From Myxococcales bacterium (GTDB lineage Bacteria; Myxococcota_A; Polyangia; Polyangiales; Houyiibacteriaceae): a stretch of 48,356 nucleotides of DNA. Every line of letters begins with the position of its first letter. The stretch's first letter is position 1. Location of the stretch: contig JAHEEE010000026.1 in assembly GCA_024640845.1 (NCBI GenBank), forward strand, positions 1-48,356, given 5' to 3'. This document shows, in pieces, positions 12,488 to 30,189 of this stretch. The translations under genes and the position numbers were made by a program. The notes under the pieces were generated by a model. It made no database searches and was not told the origin of the DNA. It worked only from the letters and a program-made list of their open reading frames with translations.

Positions 12488-13120
12488 TCACTCCCTCCTC
12501 AGCCATCGGACGACCGTCGACGCCAAGACCACGTCGACGTTCGGTGCCTTGTTGGCTCCCTCGAGGTTCCAGCCGTCGGCGGTTGCGGCGTCGCAGTCGG
12601 CGCCTCGGAAAGCGCTTCCTTGGACCCATCTCGAATGCGTTGCGCCCCCAGGCACGACGCCCTCCCGGAACCAGAACGTCCGAACGTCGACCCGCATGGA
12701 GCTCCCTTGGCGAAGCCAGCCCATGCGCAAGTTCACGCAGTATTTCGTGTTGTTACCCGCGACGTCGTCCCGACCTGCATAGTCGAAGCGGTAATACTCG
12801 TTCGTGTTGGTGTCGGGCGTCGGGGTAAACCAGTCCGTGTCGGCCACGGAGCCGGCGAGCGCCGACAGATAGTTGGTGCCGCTGAGAGCGCTGCTGTTGA
12901 TCCCCTCTTCCGTCCAGGAGAGGGCGTCGCGATCGATCCGCTCGATCCATCGCTCGGTGATCGCGATCGCGGTGTTCATTTCGTTTGCAGCGCGGTTCGC
13001 GCTACTCACCGCGTTGTGCATCGCGAGGATCCCGAGCGAGCCGACGGTCATGATCCCAATCGCGATCATGACCTCGATCAACGTGAATCCCGACTGCGAT
13101 CCTTGAGGTCCTCGGGTCAT
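12488..13120 (-). CDS. pilV: Minor pilin PilV
   Basis: The 210-residue prepilin has leader MTRGPQGSQSG|FTLIEVMIAIGIM with Glu at +5, followed by the conserved PilV-type stretch GSLGILAMHNAVSSANRAA in the N-terminal helix. The remainder is a small globular domain with Cys residues near the C-terminus. The ATG overlaps the fimT stop by 4 nt and its own stop nearly touches pilW, so the cluster is translationally coupled. It is processed by a PilD-type peptidase, which is not in the window. Confidence 0.9.
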   Translation of the reverse strand: MTRGPQGSQSGFTLIEVMIAIGIMTVGSLGILAMHNAVSSANRAANEMNTAIAITERWIERIDRDALSWTEEGINSSALSGTNYLSALAGSVADTDWFTPTPDTNTNEYYRFDYAGRDDVAGNNTKYCVNLRMGWLRQGSSMRVDVRTFWFREGVVPGGATHSRWVQGSAFRGADCDAATADGWNLEGANKAPNVDVVLASTVVRWLRRE

Positions 13121-13764
13121 TGCAAGATCCTCGGTGTTCCGGTGCCCATCGGGATCAGAACCTTTCGCGCGACCCCCGTCGCCGCGCCGTCGACCTCACG
13201 GTACACGATGAAACCAAACCCAGCGCGCGAGGTGCCGGTTTGCCAGTTGGAGTAGAGCGCCGTGTCGATGAACACCTGGTTGTTGGAGCCCGCCTCGTAG
13301 CAAAACGAGGTGTCGTCCCAGCCGTCGACGCGGACGATGTCGTTGTCGCTGGTGTCTGCATCGAAGGTGCTCGCGTAGAGGTAGTCGACGCAACGCCAGT
13401 TGTTGGCGTCGTCGCAGTCTAGATCCGCGAGCGAGAACCCGGCGTTCTCGAAGATGGTCAAAGAGCAGGCGCCGCCGGTGCCGCGCCGAGTCTCGAAGGC
13501 CCAGGCATCATTGGTCAGACCCGTGCCGGAGTCGTTCGCGTAGACGACTTGGTGCGCGCGTCCATAGGCCAGCGACATGTATCGCGCGCGTCGGAACAAC
13601 GAAACGACGTCCCGCGCGACCATCGCCACCCGTCGGTCCGCCAACCCCCTGCCCATGCTTGGCAGGGCGGCACTGACGAGCACCCCCATGACCGCCAACA
13701 CCACCATGAGCTCGACGAGCGTCAGACCCCGCAGCGACTTTCGATTCCGAGATTTCCTGGGCAC
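13117..13764 (-). CDS. fimT: Minor pilin FimT/GspH-like
   Basis: The 215-residue prepilin begins with GTG and has leader ...KSLRG|LTLVELMVVLAVMGVL with Glu at +5. The following ADRRVAMVARDVVSLFRRARYMSLAYGR matches the GspH/FimT pattern of a helix leading into a beta-sandwich. Six cysteines are scattered in the C-terminal part. It is the first gene of the minor-pilin operon. Upstream (13790-13840) is an unusually AT-rich patch that probably holds the operon promoter, though I could not pick clear -35/-10 boxes or a sigma-54 site with correct GG-N10-GC spacing. FimT in related bacteria also binds DNA during transformation; that role is not shown here. Confidence 0.88.
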   Translation of the reverse strand: MPRKSRNRKSLRGLTLVELMVVLAVMGVLVSAALPSMGRGLADRRVAMVARDVVSLFRRARYMSLAYGRAHQVVYANDSGTGLTNDAWAFETRRGTGGACSLTIFENAGFSLADLDCDDANNWRCVDYLYASTFDADTSDNDIVRVDGWDDTSFCYEAGSNNQVFIDTALYSNWQTGTSRAGFGFIVYREVDGAATGVARKVLIPMGTGTPRILQ

Positions 13765-13905: not shown

Positions 13906-14010
13906 CGTGGGGCAGGGCGTGTGAGCTGGTTTGGTTCAGCAACAGCATCCGCCCGCCGACCCCCTCCGCGCCCTGCGCTTCGCTTGGGATCGCCGGCGCG
14001 TGCACGCTAC
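13906..14010. repeat. Dispersed palindromic intergenic element, copy A
   Basis: An 8-bp inverted repeat, GCAGGGCG (13912-13919) and CGCCCTGC (13969-13976), brackets a core containing GGTTTGGTT and CATCCGCCCGCC. The core and the downstream CGCTTCGCT...GCCGGCGC recur at 48171-48317 in the same order with substitutions and small gaps. A second perfect palindrome, GCGTGCACGC (13998-14007), follows. Two diverged copies of the same layout in two intergenic gaps argue for a REP/BIME-like or MITE-like dispersed element. No target-site duplication or ORF is seen. Confidence 0.55.
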
Positions 14011-14021
14011 CGCCTGCCGGA

Positions 14022-14178
14022 TTGCGAGCTAGTGCGTCAATTGCCGGTGGGACTCGGTTGTGACTGGAATACGGCATGGCCAAGTGGACGGGAGTCCACG
14101 GAGCTGTCGGATTCCTAGGCGCAGTACGCAGGGTCCCGAAAGGGGCCCGAGTACACCGTGGGTTCGATGTCCTCGCAG
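14022..14178 (+). ncRNA. Candidate structured non-coding RNA
   Basis: The plus strand folds into nested helices. P0 is TGCGAG 14023-14028 with CTCGCA 14172-14177. P1 is CGGTG 14045-14049 with CACCG 14154-14158, plus ACTC 14052-14055 with GAGT 14149-14152. P2 is a rod of GGAAT/ATTCC (14066-14070/14111-14115), CGGCA/TGTCG (14072-14076/14105-14109) and GTGGAC/GTCCAC (14084-14089/14094-14099) closed by a GGGA loop. P3 is GGGTCCC/GGGGCCC (14131-14137/14142-14148) with a GAAA loop. Both apical loops are GNRA on the plus strand. Two G-U pairs (in P2 and P3) become A-C mismatches on the minus strand, so the RNA should be read from the plus strand. I do not recognise it as tmRNA, RNase P, SRP RNA or a familiar riboswitch; a diverged 6S RNA cannot be excluded. 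No clear promoter or terminator is seen. Confidence 0.5.
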
Positions 14179-14210
14179 ATTAGCCCCTCGCGTAAACACA
14201 CTGCGCTCAG

Positions 14211-14294
14211 TGCGGAAGAGAGGACTCGAACCTCCACGTCCTTGCGGACACATGAACCTGAATCATGCGCGTCTGCCAATTCCGCCACTTCCGC
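14211..14294 (-). tRNA. tRNA-Leu (anticodon CAG)
   Basis: On the minus strand the acceptor stem GCGGAAG pairs with CTTCCGC, the T-arm contains GGTTCGAGTCC, and a long variable arm (TGTCCGCAAGGACG) marks a class II tRNA. The anticodon stem CATGA/TCATG closes the loop TTCAGGT, so the anticodon is CAG (plus-strand 14258-14260), reading CTG leucine codons. The discriminator base is A (14211) and CCA is not encoded (the next bases are CTG), so it must be added enzymatically. A near-consensus promoter lies 14 nt upstream. Confidence 0.96.
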
Positions 14295-27414: not shown

Positions 27415-30189
27415 CTATTTGGCGGCTTGGGCGCCGCTCTTGGCGAGGCGGCTCTTGGCAGCCCGATTGTCCGGCTCGAGCGACAGCGCCTTACGCCACG
27501 CCTTGCGCGCAGCTGCCGTGTCGCCCTGCAGGTTGAGCGCGTCCCCGTAGAGGACGTGGTACTGCGCGCGCTTCGACCTCTTGCGGACCGCTTTCTTCGC
27601 CCATTTCGCGGCTCGGTCGCCGTCTTGCATGGCGACGTAGAGCGTCGCGTAGCCGGCCATCGCCTGCGGGTTCCGGGGATCGAGCTCCCAGGCCCGGTCC
27701 AGCGTCGCTTCCGCACGGGCGAGCTCCCCACCCCGGACGAGCCGCAGGGCTCGATGCACGAGCACATCCGAGGCCTTCGCCGGGTCACGCGGAAGATTCT
27801 GCGTGGGAATCGCAGGGGTCTTCGGCTTCGGCGGCGCTTGCGCCTTGGGTTTCGCGTCAGCGGCAGTGTCCGCGACAGCGCCAGTGTCCAGTACCGCGTC
27901 AGCGTCAGCGTCAGCGCCAGTGTCCGCGACAGCGTCAGCTTCCGCGACAGCGTCAGTGCCAGCGCCAGTGTCCGCGACAGCGTCAGTGCCAGCGCCAGTG
28001 TCCGCGACAGCGACAGCGTCAGTGTCCGGGACAGCGTCGGTGTCCTCGCCCTCATCGCCCAGCCCGTTCACCGTTCCGGTGATCGGCCCTCTGTTTCGCT
28101 CTTGGTCTAGATCTCGAGTCGCTTCCATGGGGATGGGCTCGACAGAGCTGCTTCGGGACCACAGGAGCCATCCGGCGACTGCGACGCCCGTGACCAACGT
28201 CAGGAGGAGCAGAGACTGGAGCCATGCCGGCGTCCCTGCGGACCGCGCCGCGGGCGCCAAGACGGTCGCTCCCTCGAGCACACGTGCCAGCTCGGGTGCG
28301 TACTCGTCTTCTTCTTCGTGGAACAAGGGGGGCGGCAGCGGCTTTCGGCTCTGCGGTGGTGGTGGCGGCGGAGTTGGCTTCCTCGGCACCGGGATGGTCA
28401 TCTGTTGTTCGAGCTCTTCTTCCGGGAGCGCTTCGAACACCGGAGCCAGACCTATCTGAGTCGACTTCTTCGACCGCGCCACGGCGTGATCGGTGTGCCT
28501 TTTGTCCCCTTCGTGCTCCTCTGCACCGCGTGCCACGGGCACCGTCAGCTGGCGGGTCTCCACCCGTCCGAGCAAGCGCTGCACCTTGTTCGTCGGGATC
28601 TCCTCATCGGAGAACGTGGAGGGGGGCGGCTCGTCCCCCGCGGTGCGAAGGTGATTGAAGCGTGGCGGCGCCATCGTCCTCGCGTCGTCGAGCTGAGGGG
28701 GCGCTTTCGCCCCTGGGGGTACCGTTGCATGCTCGTCGACCTCCGGCTCCACCGGAGGCATCGTTTCTGCGGTGACCTCGATGCGGCTGTTGCTCCCATC
28801 GGCAAAGCCGAGTTGGTGCGACACGAGGCCGAGAGCTTCATCGATGGGCATCATGATGTTCGCCACCGAAGGCAGGTCCTGCTCACGGACGGAAACGCGG
28901 CCGGAGTTGAGGCCCCACACCGATAGAAGCGCGGGCATGCCTTGGAGGGTTTGCGTGGTGCCCTCGTGAAGCGTCGCGTATGCGCCGACGATCGAGTTGT
29001 CCGCGATGTCGATTTCGATGTTGCGCTTGTGCCCGACCACGCTCAGATGGCGAACGCCCGGTACCGACCCGAGCGCGCGAAGGAGACGTCCCGGGCCGAT
29101 AAGCTCGAGACGCGTGTCGAAGTCCACCTCGTCCTCGACTCGCCGGCCCATCTCGAGGTCCTGGTCGATCAACGGGCAGATCCGCGACGCCAGCTGCGCC
29201 AAGTCGGGTCCCGTCTCGGCCGCTGAGGAAGGCCAGAAATCTTCCCATCGAACGACGAGCATCGACGCCCATCGCAGTTGAGGGTCCTTGCGCATGGCGC
29301 GCACAAAATCGATACCTTGGCCACCCACGGCGCCCGAGTCGAGGACCACGACTTGCGGATCGATCTCGCGGATGCGAGGAATCACGGCCGTCGAAAAGTC
29401 CGCAGCCGCAATCTGAACACCGCGCGTCATCAGCACCTGCGCCAGCTTCTCGGCGCGGAGCTCGTCGGAGTCGAGAATGACGATGCGGGAGCCTTGGAGC
29501 TGACTGAGGTCGACGTCTCCGGCTTCGACCGCTCCGGGTAGCGTCGAGAGCCGGCCGCCGCTCGTTTCGTGGAACTCGTACTCGAGGAGCTCCGAAGTGG
29601 ATACCGCGTCACGCAGGCGATCGAGGATGAGCTCCATGTTGTGCGCACTCGGGCTCTCGGTTTCGACCACCATCGGCATGCCTTCGAGCACACCCTTGGG
29701 AGACCGTATGCTCAGAATCCCGGTCTTGGTGTCGTTGGACACGAGATCCACGACGTCCTGCAGGTTGTGTTCGTTGAGCGCTCCACTCATCAGCCCGGGC
29801 CGCTGCGGGACTTCTTCGGCAAGCTCGGTCAGCCTACGTGCGATCGCGTCTGCGCCTGATCCTCGGGGAACGATGGCGACGGCTCCGCTGCGGAACTCCT
29901 GTCCCGCGCGCTTGAGCGCCGCCTCGTTCGAGATTACAGCAACGGGAAGAACGTCCGTTGCACGGTTGCTCGCCATCCGGCGCACGACGCTGGCGCCGCC
30001 GCGAACTGCGGCGTCGCCAATCAGTACGACGAGGTCCGGTGCGTACACGCGAACCGCTTGCTCGAGCTCAGCCGTTGCACAACCAGCGACGGATATGCCA
30101 TGGCGCCGCAACGCCTCCCCCAACGCTGTCTGCATCGGTTCGCCCTGGCCCACCATCAGGATGGTGGGCCGGTGCTCCACTTCGGACAT
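27415..30189 (-). CDS. Receiver/DUF4388-like/TM/TPR regulatory membrane protein
   Basis: The 924-residue protein is a mosaic. Residues 9-122 are a receiver-like domain lacking a normal phosphoacceptor (the acceptor strand reads LVVLIGDA). Residues 131-212 and 360-445 resemble DUF4388/PATAN modules (for example GALNEHNLQDVVDLVSNDTK). Residues 235-345 form a second receiver-like domain with Asp at 284 (VVVLDSG). A Pro-rich linker follows, then one transmembrane helix at about 655-677. Beyond the membrane come an Ala-Asp repeat (about 717-779) and a TPR region (about 805-920). PATAN/receiver proteins are characteristic of Myxococcota and relatives and are linked to polarity or gliding signalling; that role here is inference. 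The gene is divergent from the SCP2-like gene. Confidence 0.82.
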   Translation of the reverse strand: MSEVEHRPTILMVGQGEPMQTALGEALRRHGISVAGCATAELEQAVRVYAPDLVVLIGDAAVRGGASVVRRMASNRATDVLPVAVISNEAALKRAGQEFRSGAVAIVPRGSGADAIARRLTELAEEVPQRPGLMSGALNEHNLQDVVDLVSNDTKTGILSIRSPKGVLEGMPMVVETESPSAHNMELILDRLRDAVSTSELLEYEFHETSGGRLSTLPGAVEAGDVDLSQLQGSRIVILDSDELRAEKLAQVLMTRGVQIAAADFSTAVIPRIREIDPQVVVLDSGAVGGQGIDFVRAMRKDPQLRWASMLVVRWEDFWPSSAAETGPDLAQLASRICPLIDQDLEMGRRVEDEVDFDTRLELIGPGRLLRALGSVPGVRHLSVVGHKRNIEIDIADNSIVGAYATLHEGTTQTLQGMPALLSVWGLNSGRVSVREQDLPSVANIMMPIDEALGLVSHQLGFADGSNSRIEVTAETMPPVEPEVDEHATVPPGAKAPPQLDDARTMAPPRFNHLRTAGDEPPPSTFSDEEIPTNKVQRLLGRVETRQLTVPVARGAEEHEGDKRHTDHAVARSKKSTQIGLAPVFEALPEEELEQQMTIPVPRKPTPPPPPPQSRKPLPPPLFHEEEDEYAPELARVLEGATVLAPAARSAGTPAWLQSLLLLTLVTGVAVAGWLLWSRSSSVEPIPMEATRDLDQERNRGPITGTVNGLGDEGEDTDAVPDTDAVAVADTGAGTDAVADTGAGTDAVAEADAVADTGADADADAVLDTGAVADTAADAKPKAQAPPKPKTPAIPTQNLPRDPAKASDVLVHRALRLVRGGELARAEATLDRAWELDPRNPQAMAGYATLYVAMQDGDRAAKWAKKAVRKRSKRAQYHVLYGDALNLQGDTAAARKAWRKALSLEPDNRAAKSRLAKSGAQAAK
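27853..28041. repeat. Degenerate short tandem repeat encoding an Ala-Asp linker
   Basis: Variants of a 6-nt unit (gcgtca, gcgaca, gcgcca) fill this stretch. A higher-order 30-bp unit is nearly perfect at 27961-27990 and 27991-28020, and part of it recurs at 27913-27939. On the coding (minus) strand it reads as repeats like DAVADTGAGT. Few stop codons occur in any frame, which is why several spurious ORFs cross it. Such arrays change copy number easily by slippage in multiples that keep the frame. Confidence 0.8.

What the first reader, a model, noticed from the sequence alone, without database searches (positions are those of the whole stretch)
14022..14178. Unassigned structured RNA candidate with two GNRA loops
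The plus strand supports four helices, two apical GNRA tetraloops (GGGA, GAAA) and two G-U pairs that fail on the opposite strand. That is strand-specific evidence of RNA selection in an otherwise gene-free interval. It is not a class I recognise. Six GGA triplets, one in an apical loop, make CsrA-like protein binding a speculative option; a diverged 6S RNA is another.
Basis: partly seen in the sequence, partly recalled or inferred. Interest (0 to 1): 0.75.

Follow-up and report, generated by a model that had tools for sequence, protein, structure and literature searches.

The report
Gene-less folded cassette inserted into tRNA genes
The structured stretch next to a leucine tRNA gene is real: it is one copy of an undescribed family of tiny (about 165-185 bp) mobile cassettes without genes that insert at one exact spot in tRNA and tmRNA genes of Myxococcota, rebuild the gene end, and carry a conserved four-armed fold; what moves them is unknown.

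Summary
The conserved fold runs from about 14050 to 14175 on the + strand. Relatives support a four-way junction with 22 of 47 pairs changed on both sides, 0/500 shuffles, and no Rfam match. 32 of 77 related Myxococcota genomes carry it. In the window's genus it lies against the 3' ends of tRNA-Leu(CAG/AAG/TAA), Asn, Lys and Asp genes, always convergent; in other genera against tmRNA. It is an insertion: six relatives lack it at tRNA-Lys, and the alignment places a 185-bp insert exactly in the T-loop (sense GGTT^CGAGTCC), bringing a 20-bp copy of the tRNA 3' end that restores the gene and displacing the old end. Units occur in tandem. Other lineages hold 30-45 dispersed copies, partly inside MITEs. 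Best reading: a gene-less, site-specific integrative cassette whose folded + strand is under selection, mobilised in trans by an unidentified recombinase. IS110 and reverse transcriptase are absent from most carriers tested. CsrA and 6S readings are not supported.

The parts
14057..14228 (+). The inserted unit (172 bp), from the left T-loop junction after GGACTCG to the restored T-loop junction GGACTCG^AACC
   Evidence: Junctions mapped by homology with filled and empty sites in relatives; the window's own site has empty orthologs in G009 (L261), G001 (L268) and G006 (L270)
14050..14056 (+). Left core GGACTCG: remnant of the displaced tRNA-Leu 3' end and 5' strand of P1
   Evidence: Sharp start of homology in at least 15 loci; fuller displaced copies GGTGCGGAAGAGAGGACTCG in L023, L024, L026, L037
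14059..14123 (+). P2 arm: UGUG/CGCA base, bulged stem, 3x3 internal loop and hairpin
   Evidence: Fold; 11 of 18 P2 stem pairs and 2 of 6 hairpin pairs change on both sides
14124..14154 (+). P3 arm, GUAC...GUAC base with apical stem
   Evidence: All 7 apical pairs change on both sides somewhere in the genus
14155..14163 (+). P4 mini-hairpin ACC-GUG-GGU
   Evidence: Fold; ACC and GGU invariant in 21 copies, so position only, no covariation
14164..14174 (+). P1 3' strand (UCGAUGUCCUC), complement of the T-loop core
   Evidence: Follows the resident tRNA: CGAGTCC for Leu/Lys, CGAGTCCCG beside CGGGACTCG at Leu-TAA
14175..14209 (+). Spacer between fold and tRNA 3' end; holds terminator-like hairpins in Lys and Asp units
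   Evidence: Sequence
14210..14294 (-). tRNA-Leu(CAG), intact, whose 3' part (14211-14228) was supplied by the unit
   Evidence: ARAGORN, Rfam tRNA 52 bits
13962..13999 (.). Unrelated dispersed repeat upstream, not part of the element
   Evidence: Over 15 copies at 78-87% in the own genome

Best explanation
The feature is a gene-less, site-specific integrative cassette. SHOWN: units of about 165-185 bp insert in the T-loop between T55 and C56 (antisense GGACTCG^AACC), antisense to the tRNA; each ends in a copy of the resident gene's 3' end (C56 to about C75), which rebuilds the tRNA, while the old 3' end is displaced to the far side; units can stack in tandem; the + strand keeps a four-way junction fold by compensatory change. 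INFERRED: the cassette is non-autonomous and moved in trans by a site-specific recombinase, and P1 (the core plus its inverted complement, with the crossover at the P1/junction boundary) is part of the substrate read in folded, single-stranded form, as integron attC is. UNKNOWN: the enzyme; whether the + strand is also transcribed.
For: Covariation 22/47 pairs, 0/500 shuffles, slid controls far lower. Empty versus filled tRNA-Lys: 185-bp insert with 20-bp repeats in G018, absent from G002, G005, G007, G009, G015 and G000. Second pair at Leu-AAG, G006 empty and G016 filled; third at the window's own locus. Copies beside 6 tRNA types and intact tmRNA. Tandem arrays with weaker-scoring distal units. 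All eight exact tRNA-Leu T-loop junctions not continuing into tRNA, found in 19 genus genomes, abut this element. Displaced and new Lys copies carry different T-stem variants, which suggests an element-borne 3' end. Precedent: Dehalococcoides islands insert in the tmRNA T-loop with a 20-bp 3'-end repeat in tandem (PMC3146451); phage Ms6 uses the tRNA-Ala T-loop (PMC1762012).
Against: No recombinase was identified and no excised circle seen. Moving between different tRNAs needs a matching 3' end each time, which a fixed attP does not explain; a long target-site duplication would. In other families the module sits in MITEs (G053, G021) or tRNA D-loops (G041, G063), so T-loop insertion is not universal. 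Sequence conservation inside the arms exceeds that reported for attC sites. No promoter-like site was found, though the consensus scan is crude for this organism.
Confidence: 0.66

Rival explanations
1. Regulatory or structural small RNA: the + strand is transcribed towards the tRNA, folds as a four-way junction and acts in trans, or base-pairs through its antisense 3' part with tRNA 3' ends; mobility is incidental.
For: Covariation and G-U bias on +; strand always antisense to the T-loop target in the genus; a perfect complement of the tRNA 3' end lies downstream.
Against: No promoter or terminator match; the fold begins at the junction, so a promoter would have to lie in variable flank; several genus genomes hold only partial or weak copies.
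Confidence: 0.25
2. RNA-templated or RNA-guided insertion: the folded RNA is reverse transcribed into the target like a bacterial SINE, or guides an IS110-type recombinase; the tRNA 3'-end repeat is a target-site duplication.
For: Structured RNA-like unit, no terminal inverted repeats, P1 3' strand complementary to the target, repeats of about 20-33 bp matching the local gene at each tRNA.
Against: Reverse transcriptase (PF00078) absent from the window genome and 8 of 10 genus carriers tested; IS110 (PF01548) likewise 8 of 10. The GGTTCGA look of the 3' side is explained by P4 plus P1. Lys copies differ in the T-stem.
Confidence: 0.12
3. Attachment remnant of larger mobilizable islands: the element is the tRNA-proximal end of islands that lost their cargo by recombination between repeats.
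For: G016 (L038): island with TraI/MobP relaxase, TraJ-like protein and reverse transcriptase bracketed by two copies at Leu-TAA; G004 has a copy followed by the same island terminus.
Against: No integrase among the annotated ORFs; a related relaxase island in tRNA-Lys of G001 lacks the element; no larger element uses the Leu T-loop junction in the genus.
Confidence: 0.2
4. REP-like palindrome mobilised by a REP-associated tyrosine transposase.
For: High-copy hairpin repeats in G033, G053, G029; a weak REP-associated transposase hit (26 bits, cut-off 80) in the G016 island.
Against: Far larger than REP; carried 3'-end repeats; T-loop and D-loop sites share no insertion tetranucleotide by eye.
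Confidence: 0.1

Closest known systems
Dehalococcoides ssrA genomic islands (PMC3146451)
   Same: Insertion in the tmRNA T-loop, 20-bp direct repeat of the gene's 3' end, tandem accretion, cargo without its own integrase possible
   Different: Those are kilobase islands with serine recombinase DsiB on many; ours is about 0.17 kb, gene-less, has a covarying fold and uses many tRNAs as well as tmRNA
Integron gene cassettes with attC sites (PMC2727003, PMC3053210)
   Same: Tandem units at a fixed site; a folded single strand; core sequence and its inverted complement form the basal stem
   Different: attC arms lack sequence conservation; here arms are conserved and four-way; no integrase found; site is a tRNA, not attI
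tRNA-targeted islands mapped by Islander (PMC4383910) and phage Ms6 (PMC1762012)
   Same: Split tRNA restored by the element's copy; displaced fragment marks the far end; Ms6 recombines in the T-loop
   Different: Those encode an integrase and are not built around a conserved fold
MITE, REP and ERIC-type repeats (own knowledge)
   Same: Short, gene-less, multi-copy, palindromic
   Different: No terminal inverted repeats in the tRNA form; precise tRNA site; element-borne gene end

Membership tests
Any Rfam family (6S, CsrB/RsmZ, HEARO and others) | Score at or above gathering threshold | tested here: not met
   (E up to 5), 78, 96: only tRNA and tmRNA
tRNA-site integrative element | Displaced 3' fragment plus restored gene; empty site in relatives | tested here: met
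tRNA-site integrative element | Encodes an integrase | tested here: not met
   Unit is 165-185 bp with no gene; larger G016 island shows none among its annotated ORFs
Integron cassette | Folded site with core and inverse core as basal stem, tandem units | tested here: met
   P1 stem and arrays
Integron cassette | Nearby intI and attI; attC core GTTRRRY/RYYYAAC | tested here: inconclusive
   Core is GGACTCG/CGAGTCC; no integrase seen near copies held, but genomes were not searched for intI
IS110 bridge RNA | IS110 transposase in the element or genome | tested here: not met
   PF01548 absent in G000 and most carriers
Retroelement | Reverse transcriptase available | tested here: not met
   PF00078 absent in G000 and 8 of 10 genus carriers
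CsrA-sequestering RNA | Conserved GGA in apical loops | tested here: not met
   Apical loops vary; GGA in stems or internal loop
Transcribed small RNA | Independent transcript | not testable with these tools
   No expression data

The most novel reading that the evidence does not exclude
A new class of mobile element in which a conserved four-way-junction fold, as single-stranded DNA or RNA, is itself the recognised substrate for integration into the universal T-loop of tRNA and tmRNA genes, so that one enzyme can load short cassettes behind many tRNAs without harming them.
Probability: 0.35. Interest if true: 0.88.

Novelty: new variant of a known kind. Interest (0 to 1): 0.72.

Why it matters
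Most described tRNA-targeting elements carry kilobases and an integrase. A 170-bp, gene-less unit under structural selection that rebuilds different tRNAs and tmRNA makes a sharp question testable: does a folded strand, rather than a double-stranded att site, direct integration at one of the most conserved sequences in the cell? It also explains tandem structured repeats next to tRNAs in Myxococcota that annotation leaves blank.

Tried and rejected
Rfam at gathering and permissive thresholds: nothing but tRNA, tmRNA and a chance lncRNA hit. Viral contigs by two patterns, phages and plasmids by blastn: no match. Clustering ORFs within 1.5 kb of 103 loci found only orthologous neighbours or ORFs overlapping the element; an apparent downstream gene in G013/G017 looked like a local gene. 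The idea that GGTTCGA in the 3' part is a guide copied from the T-arm was dropped once P4 plus P1 explained it. The 5-kb island in the window genome's tRNA-Lys (G000:C90) uses a different, longer identity block and shows no integrase by its ORFs. The G016 island as autonomous parent was kept only as a rival. My first hand-drawn structure was misregistered and was redone. Literature searches found no description of such an element, in open-access papers only.

Full report
WHAT THE WINDOW SHOWS. The interval 14022-14178 lies between a fimT-like gene (13117-13764, minus) and tRNA-Leu(CAG) (14210-14294, minus). Homology searches in 58 relatives show that conservation begins sharply at 14050, so the outermost helix P0 and the other outer pairings, which use 14022-14049, are not part of the family. 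For the trimmed core 14050-14175 z is -3.0 on + and -1.5 on -.

FOLD. Relatives in the same genus fold much better (L020 z -7.05, L172 z -5.5) as a four-way junction: P1 (GAGGACUCG/CGAGUCCUC), P2 (base UGUG/CGCA, long stem with a 3x3 GRA/GNA internal loop), P3 (GUAC...GUAC) and a three-pair P4 (ACC/GGU). On an alignment of 21 copies made without structure, 92.6% of cells pair, 22 of 47 pairs have changes on both sides, and none of 500 shuffles reaches any of the five measures; sliding the partner by 1-3 columns drops pairing to 31-41%. P4 never varies, so it has no covariation support. Over 57 copies, P2/P3 show 69 G-U and 15 A-C cells, which points to the + strand as the folded one; copies are related, so this is a tendency. 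Rfam has no matching family.

DISTRIBUTION. A covariance model finds 2 full copies and 1 partial copy in the window's genome, 1-9 matches in each genus member tested, some weak or partial, and 30-45 matches in G021, G029, G033 and G053. 32 of 77 relatives and 14 of 284 genomes drawn from the phylum are positive. A pattern scan of named contigs returned only Myxococcota/Deltaproteobacteria MAGs. Viral contigs, phages and plasmids gave nothing.

IT IS AN INSERTION IN tRNA GENES. In the genus the element lies convergent with tRNA-Leu(CAG), Leu(AAG), Leu(TAA), Asn(GTT), Lys(CTT) and Asp(GTC), plus 3' fragments of a Met-like tRNA. Where the copies are well preserved, each has the reverse complement of that tRNA's 3' part on its left and a fresh copy restoring the intact tRNA on its right; in the window the left copy has decayed to GGACTCG. 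G018 against relatives at tRNA-Lys gives a clean 185-bp insert exactly at GGACTCG^AACC; G000, the window's own genome, lacks the element there too but has another island in the gene. Leu-AAG (G006 empty, G016 filled) and the window's own Leu-CAG locus (G009, G001 and G006 empty) agree. In G026, G032, G035 and G067 the target is an intact tmRNA gene, with four units at E below 0.01 around one site in G026. In G041/G063 copies lie inside D-loops of tRNA genes in a large array, in sense orientation. In 19 genus genomes every exact tRNA-Leu T-loop junction that does not continue into the tRNA abuts this element (8 of 8).

HOW IT MAY WORK. The layout is that of an integrase-type element: core in the T-loop, identity block to the gene's 3' end, displaced fragment outside, tandem accretion with distal units scoring worse. 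Close precedents are tmRNA T-loop islands with 20-bp repeats in Dehalococcoides (PMC3146451, read), phage Ms6 (PMC1762012) and the Islander principle (PMC4383910). What differs is the absence of any gene, the size, and the conserved fold whose basal stem P1 joins the core to its inverted complement with the crossover at the end of the stem. That last feature is how a folded integron attC is arranged (single-strand attC recombination: PMC2727003; the detailed correspondence is my own reading), so I favour a folded single-stranded substrate acted on in trans. This step is inference. A T-stem variant in the restored but not the displaced Lys copy suggests that the 3' end came with the element, but identical 33-bp repeats at tRNA-Asp in G018 and the match to the local gene at every site also fit a target duplication; I cannot separate these.

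RIVALS AND LIMITS. IS110 and reverse transcriptase are missing from most carriers tested, which weakens RNA-guided and RNA-templated models. A 5.7-kb island in G016 with a MobP relaxase, a TraJ-like protein and a reverse transcriptase is bracketed by two copies and may be a cargo-bearing relative, yet a related relaxase island in G001 lacks the element. All comparisons rest largely on MAGs, several copies lie at contig ends, the genus has no name here, and there is no expression evidence. Model E-values are rough.

Noticed in passing
G053 copies, e.g. L101:2930-3260, L103, L105: At least 43 matches of the same fold; the copies printed lie in roughly 330-bp MITEs with ends GTAAGCGTTCAGG...CTGAACGGTTAC, resembling IS66 termini, with 8-bp target duplications seen in two.
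   Followed up: partly
L092:1501-1623, L070, L069 (G041, G063): Copies sit inside the D-loop of tRNA genes in a large tRNA array, one tRNA-Tyr-like gene apparently carrying two insertions; whether these tRNAs are dead or spliced is open.
   Followed up: partly
L038:1-6000 (G016:C6): Mobilizable island with MobP relaxase, TraJ-like protein, reverse transcriptase and a weak REP-associated transposase match, no integrase found, at tRNA-Leu(TAA).
   Followed up: partly
G000:C90:6633-11637 (L221): Island of about 5 kb in tRNA-Lys of the window's genome, flanked by a 48-bp tRNA 3' repeat reaching the anticodon loop and carrying a 1303-aa repeat-rich surface-like protein.
   Followed up: partly
window 13962-13999: GC-rich dispersed repeat with over 15 copies in the genome at 78-87% identity.
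   Followed up: no
window about 27800-28000: Low-complexity stretch whose translations are runs of ASVSAT/ALTLSR-type repeats, similar to the CACTGACACTGGC tracts beside some element copies in G016 and G018.
   Followed up: no
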